DNA of 64,000 nt from Elusimicrobiaceae bacterium (GTDB lineage Bacteria; Elusimicrobiota; Elusimicrobia; Elusimicrobiales; Elusimicrobiaceae). The position numbers were made by a program, and so were the translations under genes. The notes under the pieces are model-generated. The model did no database searches and was not told the origin of the DNA. It was given only the letters and a program-made list of their open reading frames with translations. Shown here one piece after another: positions 32,135-35,463 of the stretch. The stretch spans positions 124,001 to 188,000 of the forward strand of contig JAFXUJ010000001.1 of assembly GCA_017525025.1 (NCBI GenBank). The letters are read 5' to 3'. The stretch's first letter is position 1; each line of letters begins with the position of its first letter.

Positions 32135-32686
32135 TTATTTCTTTTTAATCGGTTTGATCAGCCCGAAAGTGCCGTCAAGCCGTTTGAAAATCAAGTTAAT
32201 TTGTTTGGAATCTTCATCCAAGAAAATCCAAAAGGAATATCCCAACCGTTCCATTTCATAGGCGGCATCTTCCGGATTCATCGGATAGACTTCCACTTGC
32301 TTAATGACGGAAAACTTTACGTCCGTTTGCGGCAAGAGGATGTTGTCAGTATAAGGTTCTACCATTTCTACTTTGGCAGATTTGGAACCGATCTTGCGCG
32401 ATTTAGCTTTATTTTTAATTTTTTTAGCTTGCGCTTCCGCTTTGACGGCAGCGGCATCAATCGCTTTGTAAAGGTTGCTTTCTACGGCGCTGGCGTTAAT
32501 CGTGGTTTTGGCGCCTGTGTGTAAAATGATTTCAGCTTTTTGGTGAATTTTCTTTTCCACGGAAATCAACACTTGGGCGGAAACAATGTTGTCAAAAAAG
32601 TTTTCAACTTTGCTTACGCGCGTGTTAATAAATTCTTTAATGGCCGGAGTTAATTTAATGTTCTTGGCCGTTATTTTAATATCCAT
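32135..32686 (-). CDS. hpf: Long-form ribosome hibernation promoting factor
   Basis: 183 residues: an N-terminal HPF domain (MDIKITAKNIKLTPAIKEFI) and a C-terminal dimerisation tail (MNPEDAAYEMERLGYSFWIF), i.e. the long form that makes 100S ribosome dimers. First gene of the hprK-PTS-lepA unit, with a strong GGAGG site. Often named raiA. Confidence 0.94.
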   Translation of the reverse strand: MDIKITAKNIKLTPAIKEFINTRVSKVENFFDNIVSAQVLISVEKKIHQKAEIILHTGAKTTINASAVESNLYKAIDAAAVKAEAQAKKIKNKAKSRKIGSKSAKVEMVEPYTDNILLPQTDVKFSVIKQVEVYPMNPEDAAYEMERLGYSFWIFLDEDSKQINLIFKRLDGTFGLIKPIKKK

Positions 32687-32812: not shown

Positions 32813-32856
32813 CAAAAAAAGCGGGGATTTAGCGGTAAATTTGTTAAGATATAAAA
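32813..32856 (+). promoter_or_regulatory. 44-bp promoter block, copy 1
   Basis: Identical base for base to 34194-34237. It contains GCGGGGATTTAGCGG and an extended -10, TGT-TAAGAT (32842-32850). Transcription is predicted at about 32857, one base before the first RNA helix. Full identity, while the RNA after it has diverged, suggests a shared transcription factor or strong constraint. Confidence 0.65.
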
Positions 32857-33110
32857 AGCCCTGTTTGGTTATATAGGGCCGGTAGCACAGTTGGCTACCC
32901 AATTTATGCTGTTTTGGAACCCTTGCGGAAAGGGGGCACCGTTAGTGACGGTACCATTCACGCCAAAACAGCCGTTTTAGGTGGTTTGCACGCGGCCTAA
33001 TTACCCGCATGCAAACTGCCGAGTGTTCGCGTCGTCTTATGACGGCGCGGGCTACGGCTGTTTGCCTTGGAGTGCGTGAATGGTCTCCGGGCAAATGGCC
33101 GTTTTTGTTT
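32857..33110 (+). ncRNA. Structured leader RNA, copy 1 (candidate attenuator)
   Basis: About 254 nt folding into: P1 32858-62/32875-79; P2 GGTAGC/GCTACC 32881-86/32894-99; P3 10 bp 32908-17/32963-72 enclosing two hairpins (CCCTT/AAGGG and ACCGT/ACGGT); P4 hairpin 32984-95/33005-16 with loop CCTAATTAC; P5 9 bp 33028-36/33041-49; and a 13-bp 3' hairpin 33054-66/33090-102 followed by TTTTTGTTT. The loop of the last hairpin (33074-84) is the exact 11-nt complement of 32953-63, a pseudoknot. Every helix is kept with base changes in copy 2. It precedes the GT2 gene. I cannot assign it to a known RNA family. Confidence 0.8.
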
Positions 33111-33152
33111 GCGGTGATTTCTTTCCTTAGGGTGTCACTTAAGGAGAGAAAC

Positions 33153-34124
33153 ATGTCCCCGAAAATATCTGTTTTAATTCCGGTCTATAATGCCCAAAAA
33201 TATTTGCAAGCGTGCTTAGCGTCTATCCAAAAGCAAACTTTTACAGATTTTGAAATAGTTTGTTTGGATGACGGCTCCACGGATGATTCGCTTGATGAAC
33301 TAAAAAATTTTCAAAAACACGAGTCACGTTTACAGGTGCTGACCCAGGCAAATGCCGGGGTGGCGGCCACACGTAACCGTCTAATGCGCCAAGCGCGCGG
33401 AACGTATATTGCATTTGTGGATGCGGATGATGTAATTGCCCCGGATTATCTGGAAAAATTATATACGGCGGCGCAAGAGAGCGGGGCGGATATTACAAAA
33501 TGTTTTTTTAAAGAAATTAGTGAGGACGGAAAACAAATTTCTTCCGCTCGTTGTAGCCATTTATTTTATAAAACTCCTTCGGATACATTGACTAGTTGTT
33601 TTATCTGTGGTTATCACGACAGTATTGTCTGGGGGAAATTGTTCCGCCGGGCATGGCTGGAAGATATAAACATATTTTTTTTAGAGGAACGCATTTGCGA
33701 AGATTTACCATTTACCACGCAAGCTTTTTTGGAAGCCCGCCAAATTACCATTGTGCCACAACACCTTTATTTTTATCGTAAAGGATTAACCCACTGCGTT
33801 ACCACACAAGATGAGAGGGTGATTATTGATTGGTTAAAAAATTTATTGGATTTGCAACACATTTTACGTTTTCGTTCTTTGTGGAAAGACGAAGTGATTG
33901 CGCAATGGGTTAAGGTGGTTGTGTGGCGGATTTGTGCGTTTCGCAAACTTCCCGCCGCCGAACGTGCCCAATATATCCCCTTACAACAACAAGCGTTCCG
34001 GCAAGCCCGGCAAGCTGTATGGGCCGGAGGGTGGCGGAGCAAATTGCGTTGGGGCGGACTATTTGTTTTAGTGAGGTTATGTGGTTGGCGCAGTGTGTAT
34101 TTTTGGACAAAAATTTTTAGATAA
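33153..34124 (+). CDS. Family 2 glycosyltransferase
   Basis: 323 residues from ATG 33153 (AAGGAG site). GT-A fold: ISVLIPVYNAQKYLQACLAS, CLDDGSTDDSL, and the metal-binding region FVDADDVIAPDYLEKLY. The C-terminal third is basic with amphipathic helices, possibly membrane-associated. Probably adds one sugar to a surface polysaccharide. Expressed from the structured-RNA promoter; the AAGGA of its ribosome site can pair with TCCTTA at 33124-33129, so translation may be masked as well. Followed by a terminator. Confidence 0.88.
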   Translation: MSPKISVLIPVYNAQKYLQACLASIQKQTFTDFEIVCLDDGSTDDSLDELKNFQKHESRLQVLTQANAGVAATRNRLMRQARGTYIAFVDADDVIAPDYLEKLYTAAQESGADITKCFFKEISEDGKQISSARCSHLFYKTPSDTLTSCFICGYHDSIVWGKLFRRAWLEDINIFFLEERICEDLPFTTQAFLEARQITIVPQHLYFYRKGLTHCVTTQDERVIIDWLKNLLDLQHILRFRSLWKDEVIAQWVKVVVWRICAFRKLPAAERAQYIPLQQQAFRQARQAVWAGGWRSKLRWGGLFVLVRLCGWRSVYFWTKIFR

Positions 34125-34189
34125 AAAATACCCCGCATATGCGGGGCATTTTTTATAACCCAAACAACAACTACACATGGAACTCTTTA
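34125..34189. repeat. Left arm of 65-bp inverted repeat
   Basis: Matches the reverse complement of 35445-35509 at 64 of 65 positions. It includes the palindromic terminator core and extends through ATAACCCAAACAACAACTAC to AACTCTTTA. The two arms enclose RNA copy 2 and the pyruvyl-transferase gene (1,255 bp). Confidence 0.9.
34129..34154 (+). terminator. Terminator after the GT2 gene
   Basis: TACCCCGCATATGCGGGGCA palindrome followed by six Ts; same core as the one after the pyruvyl-transferase gene. Confidence 0.85.
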
Positions 34190-34193
34190 TTTT

Positions 34194-34237
34194 CAAAAAA
34201 AGCGGGGATTTAGCGGTAAATTTGTTAAGATATAAAA
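34194..34237 (+). promoter_or_regulatory. 44-bp promoter block, copy 2
   Basis: Identical to 32813-32856, including extended -10 TGT-TAAGAT (34223-34231). The predicted start, about 34238, is the first base of helix P1 of the second RNA. Confidence 0.65.
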
Positions 34238-34492
34238 GACTCTGTGTTTGTTATATGGAGTCCGTAGTGTTGTTGGCTACACGATTTAACTGTTTTTGGA
34301 TTGCCTATTAAGAATAGGTGTCACCGCTTAGGCGGTTTCGTCACTCCAAAAACAGCCGTTTAGGCGCCAAGCAAACGGACTAATTACCCGTTTGTATGGC
34401 GACGAATGCACTTGCCTTGTTTTCAAGGCAGGTGTTACGGCTGTTTGTTTTGGGTTGAGTGACGAGACCCGGGCAAATGGCCGTTTTTGTTT
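34238..34492 (+). ncRNA. Structured leader RNA, copy 2 (candidate attenuator)
   Basis: About 255 nt with the same fold as copy 1 but changed bases: P1 GACTC/GAGTC (34238-42/34258-62); P2 GTAG/CTAC; P3 11 bp (34290-300/34345-55) with an extra T-A pair; inner hairpins CCTATT/AATAGG and ACCGC/GCGGT; P4 CGCCA..CAAACGG/CCGTTTG..TGGCG with loop ACTAATTAC; P5 11 bp (34409-19/34424-34); 3' hairpin from 34437 to 34484, then TTTTGTTT. The apical GAGTGACGA (34457-65) pairs with TCGTCACTC (34338-46), a different sequence from copy 1 but the same contact. Upstream of the pyruvyl-transferase gene. Confidence 0.8.
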
Positions 34493-34527
34493 GCCTTTCT
34501 AAGCACCTTTCACCTTGGGAGGGCAAA

Positions 34528-35463
34528 ATGTTAGCCGCTATTGAAAAATGCTTGTTTGGAGTTAATAGAAATAAAATTATTGTTGATATAGCTACGGGAT
34601 ATGATGAGGGGAACTACGGCGATTTGCTGGCCCGGTACATTGTGGAGCAATTATCCGGCAAACAGATTATCAAGCATACGGGGAACAATTCTTACCATTT
34701 GTGTTCAGTCGGGTCGGTGTTAAACCGAAATAAAATGTGTTCTAATACAGTTGTGTGGGGCAGCGGATTCCTAACCCCACAAACAGCCCGGTACAAAATA
34801 GTATTAACAAAAATTAGGCAATATTTGCGTGGCAAAGTTGGCCAGCCGGTTTATTTGGCTGTACGCGGCCGAAAAACACGTGAGATTTTGTTAAAAGCAG
34901 GCTATGTTTGCCCTGAAATTTATGCGGACCCTGCCCTCATAATGCCTAAACTTTATTTCCCAAAAATTAATACGAAGTTTAAATTAGGAGTAGTACTTCA
35001 CTGGTCGCAAGAGAAATTTGCATCTATGTTTAACAACATAGAGGGTGTAAGGGTAATTAACATCAACCGTAAATATAGCGAAATCAACAGTTTTATTGAT
35101 GAAATTCTTTCATGCAATTATATATTGTCTTCCTCTTTGCATGGTTTAATAATTGCCAATGCGTATAAGATTCCTTGCGTTAGGTTGAAAATAGAAAAGG
35201 TCCCTATCGCTACTAGCGAGGAAAAAGATGATTTCAAGTTTGAAGATTATGTTTCCGGATTAAACTTATGTAAAGAAGATAAAGAAAAGCCGGATTATGT
35301 TTTCCATACGCTAACTTTAAAACCGGGAGTTAAACGACTGGATTTGATGGATTTAGTTAAAGCTCAGGCAACAAACCGAGAGTTTGTTATCAATTTAACG
35401 CCTTTAGTACAGGCCTTTCCTTTTTTGGCCTCAGCATATAAGGGTAAAGAGTTCCATGTGTAG
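34528..35463 (+). CDS. Polysaccharide pyruvyl transferase family protein
   Basis: 311 residues from ATG 34528, with GGGAGGG upstream; the longer frame from GTG 34459 would run through the RNA hairpin and is rejected. Family motifs: GNYGDLLARYIVEQL near the N-terminus, VVWGSGFLTPQ, VRGRKTREILLKAGY, YADPALIMPK, and SSSLHGLIIANAYKIPCVRL. Members attach pyruvyl ketals (or act in related sugar transfers) to capsule or teichuronic-type polymers. AT-richer than flanking core genes. Its last codons (FHV, stop) lie in the right inverted-repeat arm. Confidence 0.85.
   Translation: MLAAIEKCLFGVNRNKIIVDIATGYDEGNYGDLLARYIVEQLSGKQIIKHTGNNSYHLCSVGSVLNRNKMCSNTVVWGSGFLTPQTARYKIVLTKIRQYLRGKVGQPVYLAVRGRKTREILLKAGYVCPEIYADPALIMPKLYFPKINTKFKLGVVLHWSQEKFASMFNNIEGVRVININRKYSEINSFIDEILSCNYILSSSLHGLIIANAYKIPCVRLKIEKVPIATSEEKDDFKFEDYVSGLNLCKEDKEKPDYVFHTLTLKPGVKRLDLMDLVKAQATNREFVINLTPLVQAFPFLASAYKGKEFHV

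What the first reader, a model, noticed from the sequence alone, without database searches (positions are those of the whole stretch)
32813..34527. Two copies of an unrecognised ~255-nt structured RNA in front of two surface-polysaccharide genes
32857-33110 and 34238-34492 share a fold of at least nine helices although their sequences differ widely. Compensatory changes hit nearly every helix: P1 GCCCT/AGGGC against GACTC/GAGTC; inner hairpins CCCTT/AAGGG against CCTATT/AATAGG and ACCGT/ACGGT against ACCGC/GCGGT; P4 GTTTGCA..GCGG against CGCCA..CAAACGG. P3 gained one T-A pair on both sides in copy 2. The 8-nt P4 loop CTAATTAC is kept while its stem changed. This is the pattern of an RNA under selection. 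I can match it to no riboswitch or leader class I know. Its place before a GT2 and a pyruvyl-transferase gene suggests control of surface glycans.
Basis: partly seen in the sequence, partly recalled or inferred. Interest (0 to 1): 0.92.

Follow-up and report, generated by a model that had tools for sequence, protein, structure and literature searches.

The report
New attenuator-like RNA family in Elusimicrobiota
In front of surface-structure genes of gut Elusimicrobiota sits an undescribed folded RNA, present in up to about 50 copies per small genome, that looks like a genetic switch: it can fold in two mutually exclusive ways, one of which should stop transcription before the gene.

Summary
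Both copies belong to a structured RNA family with no Rfam match. A covariance model from 12 copies finds it in 62 of 66 genomes of the genus (12 copies here, 52 and 50 in two other genomes), in a second genus of the family and in one other family of the phylum, but not in about 210 other phylum genomes. Nearly all helices show compensatory changes. Most copies lie shortly upstream of a ribosome-binding site and start codon, mainly of type IV pilin-like genes, also glycosyltransferases, pyruvyl transferases and outer-membrane proteins. Strands A:B plus C:D end in a U-rich terminator, while B:C excludes both. B and C covary, and a copy-specific ~10-bp helix (X:Y; 97% of 180 copies, 161 sequences) favours B:C until D is made. 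A side stem ends in a self-complementary loop (TAATTA, TTATAA, TCATGA, GATC and others; 174 of 180 copies), the layout of the HIV-1 dimer-initiation kissing loop. Best reading: a cis-acting transcription attenuator with a probable kissing-loop dimer module. The signal and all expression steps are unproven.

The parts
32813..32856 (+). copy 1: promoter-like stretch, identical to 34194-34237; -10-like TATAAA at 32850-32855
   Evidence: relatives show TTTGYTATAMT-type boxes at the matching place; function inferred
32857..32899 (+). copy 1: two 5' hairpins (AGCCCT..AGGGC and GGTAGC..GCTACC), not part of the conserved core
32909..32975 (+). copy 1: P1 domain. Strand A 32909-32917, hp1 32920-32934, hp2 32938-32952, X 32953-32963, strand B with linker 32963-32975
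   Evidence: R1 match 32909-33106
32980..33020 (+). copy 1: Pb stem; apical loop 32996-33004 with self-complementary TAATTA at 32998-33003 (probable kissing loop)
33023..33052 (+). copy 1: Pc hairpin
33054..33111 (+). copy 1: Pd/Pe, terminator-like hairpin and U-run. Strand C from 33054, Y 33074-33084, strand D and U-run 33092-33111
   Evidence: termination inferred
33118..33151 (+). copy 1: hairpin that would cover the ribosome-binding site
   Evidence: sequence; the same layout in L018, L022, L029, L033
33153..34124 (+). GT2 glycosyltransferase gene (323 aa) behind copy 1
   Evidence: PF00535 E 2.5e-37
34131..34152 (+). ordinary terminator-like hairpin and T-run between gene 1 and leader 2
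34194..34237 (+). copy 2: promoter-like stretch identical to that of copy 1
   Evidence: function inferred
34238..34283 (+). copy 2: two 5' hairpins, not part of the conserved core
34290..34359 (+). copy 2: P1 domain. Strand A 34290-34299, hp1 34303-34319, hp2 34323-34336, X 34336-34346, strand B with linker 34346-34359
   Evidence: R1 match 34290-34488
34363..34403 (+). copy 2: Pb stem; self-complementary TAATTA at 34381-34386
34407..34435 (+). copy 2: Pc hairpin
34437..34493 (+). copy 2: Pd/Pe, terminator-like hairpin and U-run. Strand C from 34437, Y 34457-34467, strand D and U-run 34474-34493
   Evidence: termination inferred
34490..34527 (+). copy 2: possible hairpin TTTGCC/GGCAAA over the ribosome-binding site
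   Evidence: sequence; inference
34528..35463 (+). polysaccharide pyruvyl transferase gene (311 aa) behind copy 2
   Evidence: PF04230 E 1.1e-13

Best explanation
A family of cis-acting 5' leader RNAs that work as transcription attenuators for envelope and pilin-like genes. Strand A pairs with B (P1, the anti-antiterminator); C then pairs with D, giving a hairpin followed by a U-run, and transcription stops. Alternatively B lets go of A and pairs with C; X, next to B, and Y, just beyond C, extend this into one long antiterminator helix and RNA polymerase reads through. During transcription the B:C fold is predicted to win until D is made; D then makes the terminator fold the more stable one, so the outcome depends on what holds or frees B in time. 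Pb, between B and C, ends in a self-complementary loop that probably lets two leaders kiss and dimerise; its effect on the switch is unknown. Shown from sequence: structure, covariation, the alternative pairing, the U-run, the palindromic loops, the position before genes. Inferred: that termination occurs, that dimers form, the direction of control and the signal.
For: Structure conserved with compensatory changes in five of six helices. X:Y pairs in 175 of 180 copies against 2.1% for mismatched copies (also 35). All 8 copies with a changed C have the matching change in B (Fisher 5e-10, kinship not corrected). The CGGC/GCCG base never varies and is followed by a mean of 6.7 T in 8 nt. B:C fold favoured before D in 169-172 of 175 copies by about 9 kcal/mol, terminator fold favoured in the complete RNA in 161 of 175; swapping Y between copies cuts the B:C advantage from 9.3 to 1.3. 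Divergent L144 keeps both folds with different letters. Ribosome-binding site and start codon follow in 139 copies, median 38 nt after the core. Self-complementary Pb loops in 174 of 180 copies.
Against: No expression or probing data. Energies leave out the pseudoknot that X:Y would form in the terminator fold. Strands A-D vary little, so B:C covariation rests on few changes (two families, three genera). No tree-aware null was run. No sensor is identified, and few unpaired bases are conserved. Hairpins over the ribosome-binding site in some copies could mean translational control instead.
Confidence: 0.68

Rival explanations
1. A ligand-sensing riboswitch: the P1 domain (hp1, hp2) is an aptamer, for instance for a second messenger that controls pili, and the alternative helices are its expression platform. 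This is compatible with attenuation and differs in the signal.
For: Many copies before pilin and surface genes recall c-di-GMP riboswitches; GGDEF proteins are present (2-3 per genome); an expression-platform-like switch exists.
Against: hp1 and hp2 vary in sequence and size and conserved unpaired bases are few; no Rfam riboswitch match.
Confidence: 0.15
2. A leader that acts on translation or mRNA stability and not on termination; the hairpin plus U-run is read through and the folds control ribosome access.
For: Some copies have hairpins over the ribosome-binding site (window 33118-33151; L018 group), and 18% carry a second strand complementary to A just before it.
Against: The U-run after CGGC/GCCG is kept in all 180 copies, although translational control would not need it; the hairpin over the ribosome-binding site is not general.
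Confidence: 0.15
3. An independent small RNA made from its own promoter and ended by its own terminator; the gene behind it is incidental.
For: Own promoter-like stretch and terminator; strong fold.
Against: Fixed orientation and a median of 38 nt to a start codon; targets are mostly surface genes; no Hfq match in four genomes.
Confidence: 0.07
4. A dispersed mobile DNA element (MITE- or REP-like) whose hairpins serve transposition, settled in front of genes.
For: Many scattered copies; copy number differs widely between related genomes (1 in G016, 52 in G048).
Against: Orientation and distance to genes are fixed; helices drift with compensation; none of it matches viral contigs; the leader comes with promoter and ribosome-binding site.
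Confidence: 0.04

Closest known systems
pyr operon attenuators of Bacillus (PyrR-controlled)
   Same: Logic of anti-antiterminator, antiterminator and terminator in one leader, ending in a hairpin and U-run
   Different: Other targets, no sequence relation seen, an extra X:Y helix and Pb loop, more copies; partner unknown
c-di-GMP-I riboswitch (GEMM, RF01051)
   Same: Many copies per genome in some bacteria, upstream of pilin and surface genes (own knowledge)
   Different: No Rfam match, other architecture, no compact conserved binding core
HIV-1 dimer initiation site kissing loop
   Same: 9-nt loop made of 2 nt + self-complementary hexamer + 1 nt on a stem; several different palindromes are allowed
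   Different: In a bacterial mRNA leader, A/U-rich hexamers, sometimes a 7-nt loop with a tetramer; dimerisation not shown
T-box leaders
   Same: Large leader with alternative terminator and antiterminator, many copies
   Different: No Rfam match; targets are not amino-acid genes
HEARO / OMEGA RNA of IscB
   Same: About 200-nt structured RNA, multicopy in some genomes
   Different: No Rfam match; no nuclease or transposon gene attached; sits before ribosome-binding sites

Membership tests
Any Rfam 15 family | Score above the family's gathering threshold | tested here: not met
   Only tRNA and rRNA genes reach it in the window and in 14 member loci
Three-helix transcription attenuator (as a mechanism) | Mutually exclusive helices A:B, B:C, C:D with C:D followed by a U-run | tested here: met
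Three-helix transcription attenuator (as a mechanism) | Condition-dependent termination and read-through in vivo | not testable with these tools
   No transcript data in reach
PyrR-controlled pyr attenuator | Lies upstream of pyrimidine genes | tested here: not met
   Targets are pilin-like, glycosyltransferase and envelope genes
PyrR-controlled pyr attenuator | PyrR binds the anti-antiterminator loop | not tested
   No search for PyrR or its site was made
c-di-GMP-I riboswitch (GEMM) | Match to RF01051 | tested here: not met
c-di-GMP-I riboswitch (GEMM) | Binds c-di-GMP | not testable with these tools
   GGDEF proteins exist in the genomes, which is not a binding test
T-box leader | Match to the Rfam T-box model | tested here: not met
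HEARO / OMEGA RNA | Match to the Rfam HEARO model | tested here: not met
DIS-like kissing loop | Stem with a self-complementary loop core, different palindromes tolerated | tested here: met
   174 of 180 copies; 20 of 33 distinct loops hold a hexamer palindrome against 2.5 in shuffles; Pc loop control none
DIS-like kissing loop | Two RNA molecules dimerise through the loop | not testable with these tools
   Needs gels or probing

The most novel reading that the evidence does not exclude
A dimerisation-gated attenuator: leaders of different surface-gene mRNAs recognise each other through palindromic kissing loops, and kissing decides between terminator and antiterminator, so that transcripts of a large pilin-like family sense one another and are expressed together or exclusively.
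Probability: 0.22. Interest if true: 0.93.

Novelty: new variant of a known kind. Interest (0 to 1): 0.82.

Why it matters
A phylum with hardly any known gene regulation appears to use one large undescribed RNA switch dozens of times per 1.5-Mb genome, before genes that make the cell surface. The natural set of hundreds of diverged but paired copies makes alternative folding visible in evolution, including a helix whose letters are nearly free while its pairing is fixed. If the palindromic loops mediate dimers, it would be a bacterial mRNA leader with a retrovirus-like dimer module, of which I know no example.

Tried and rejected
Sub-threshold Rfam hits (Leu_leader, rimP, IBV D-RNA): below the families' cut-offs; the leader hits lie on the ordinary hairpin between the genes, the IBV hit on the long Pb stem. 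Arcicella locus L078 from the pattern scan: no match to the model, chance. X:Y as an active code against cross-talk: cross-pairing between copies of one genome is rare (4 of about 1,630 ordered pairs at 8 bp or more), but by a rough estimate of mine that is what random sequences give, so drift under a pairing rule suffices. The first constrained-energy run had its constraint ignored and was repeated. Model R2 without Pb kept only 28 pairs and added a few genera of the same families plus one marginal genome. The E. minutum genome paper and the 2017 survey of candidate RNAs are not in the library; paper searches found no description of this RNA, which is weak evidence because most journals are missing. 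Hfq-dependent sRNA: no Hfq match.

Full report
WHAT IS THERE. The two copies are real. Their cores are 32909-33106 and 34290-34488, 71.5% identical; each leader folds far below shuffled sequence (z -6.4, -8.1). No Rfam family matches the window or 14 further member loci, apart from tRNA and rRNA genes. The 44 nt in front of both copies are identical and hold a -10-like box; a terminator-like hairpin lies between the first gene and the second leader, so each copy probably heads its own unit. The genes are a GT2 glycosyltransferase and a polysaccharide pyruvyl transferase.

DISTRIBUTION. BLAST found further copies in this genome and its genus. A covariance model of 12 copies (R1) matches 62 of 66 genomes of the genus. 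This genome has 12 strong copies; two other genomes have 52 and 50, one of family f15 has 25. Within the phylum it occurs in two genera of family f1 and in family f15, and in none of about 210 other genomes at the same threshold. Closer searches found divergent copies, lacking the Pb stem, in genera g10 and g13, and a Pb-less model added some f15 genera. An exact-pattern scan of 84,980 species genomes hit Elusimicrobiota records, one unnamed bacterium and one site that the model does not match; viral contigs gave none. That f15 is Endomicrobiaceae and that G105 is Elusimicrobium minutum are guesses of mine.

STRUCTURE. 183 fetched matches give 180 distinct copies. Nested helices: P1 (strands A:B) holding hairpins hp1 and hp2; Pb; Pc; Pd/Pe (strands C:D). 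On 41 and 80 distinct rows, 95.1% and 94.7% of cells pair, 54 and 59 of 69 pairs change on both sides, and no shuffle or slide comes near. These alignments are fitted to the model, but the next three findings were not built into it.

THREE FINDINGS OUTSIDE THE MODEL. (1) X, just before B, pairs with Y, beyond C: at least 7 bp in 175 of 180 copies, mean about 10, against 2.1% for X and Y of different copies; 161 different sequences. (2) B can pair with C. All 8 copies with C = CGGCTATT carry the matching change in B (Fisher 5e-10, kinship not corrected); they come from two families and three genera, and in some of them A or D did not follow. L144 and L145, with quite different letters, keep the logic: cut before D they fold as X-B with C-Y, and complete L144 folds as A:B plus C:D. 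(3) The Pb loop has a self-complementary core in 174 of 180 copies: TAATTA, TTATAA, TCATGA, TTCGAA, TTGCAA, TCTAGA, GATC, AGCT, mostly as 2 nt + core + 1 nt. Of 33 distinct loops 20 contain a hexamer palindrome (2.5 expected, maximum 7 in 300 shuffles); the Pc loop has none. The central two bases cannot pair within one hairpin, so pairing between two molecules is the natural reading.

SWITCH. The base CGGC/GCCG never varies and is followed by a mean of 6.7 T in 8 nt, an intrinsic-terminator layout. Constrained folding: once Y is made but not D, the B:C fold is better in 169-172 of 175 copies by about 9 kcal/mol; with D, A:B plus C:D is better in 161 of 175, on average by 6.6. Exchanging Y between copies cuts the B:C advantage from 9.3 to 1.3, so X:Y is what lets the antiterminator compete. 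This explains why A-D hardly vary (B and C must each fit two partners) while X:Y drifts. It is the logic of a three-helix attenuator. The energies leave out the pseudoknot that X:Y would form in the terminator fold.

TARGETS. A ribosome-binding site and start codon follow in 139 copies, median 38 nt after the core; 88 of 160 testable copies precede pilin-like genes and 14 GT2-like genes. In this genome: four pilin-like genes, two outer-membrane barrels, GT2, pyruvyl transferase, an exported nuclease-like protein, a DNA-methylase-like gene, a glycosyltransferase-like gene further downstream, and a small unknown protein. A second pyruvyl transferase with the leader occurs in another species (L017). 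These genomes hold 60 to 114 pilin-like genes, only part of them with the leader.

LIMITS. Nothing here measures RNA. The signal, the direction of control, dimerisation and actual termination are inferences. Covariation statistics lack a tree-aware null. Five copies have X and Y that do not match, possibly chimeric contigs or recombined copies. The literature search was limited to open papers.

Noticed in passing
genomes G000, G016, G048, G090, G150: Very large families of N_methyl pilin-like genes (60 to 114 per 1.4-1.5 Mb genome); only part carry the leader, and G016 has 104 pilin-like genes but a single leader copy.
   Followed up: partly
L020, L035, L043, L050 and others, just after the U-run: About 18% of copies (1.7% in shuffles) carry a second B-like strand (TTCCAAAAACAG) right before the ribosome-binding site, complementary to strand A; another 14% (5.4%) a TTTGAGCC strand complementary to Pe.
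   Followed up: partly
L025, L187, L194, L196, L216: Five copies whose X and Y do not pair; the odd half of two of them matches the partner of other copies (L025 Y, L187 X), as if halves had been exchanged.
   Followed up: partly
L018, L028, L046, L089 and others, upstream of P1: An AGGAG-like motif near the presumed 5' end of many leaders, followed by a small variable hairpin, but no conserved leader peptide seen.
   Followed up: no
window 32813-32856 and 34194-34237: The promoter-like stretches are 100% identical over 44 nt while the RNA cores behind them are 71.5% identical.
   Followed up: no
L144 1440-1700: In a divergent member without Pb an additional helix (ACAAGAA with TTCTTGT) encloses P1.
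   Followed up: no
window 32135-32686, minus strand: A gene resembling the ribosome hibernation factor HPF/RaiA lies divergently upstream of copy 1 (by my reading of the translation; not searched).
   Followed up: no
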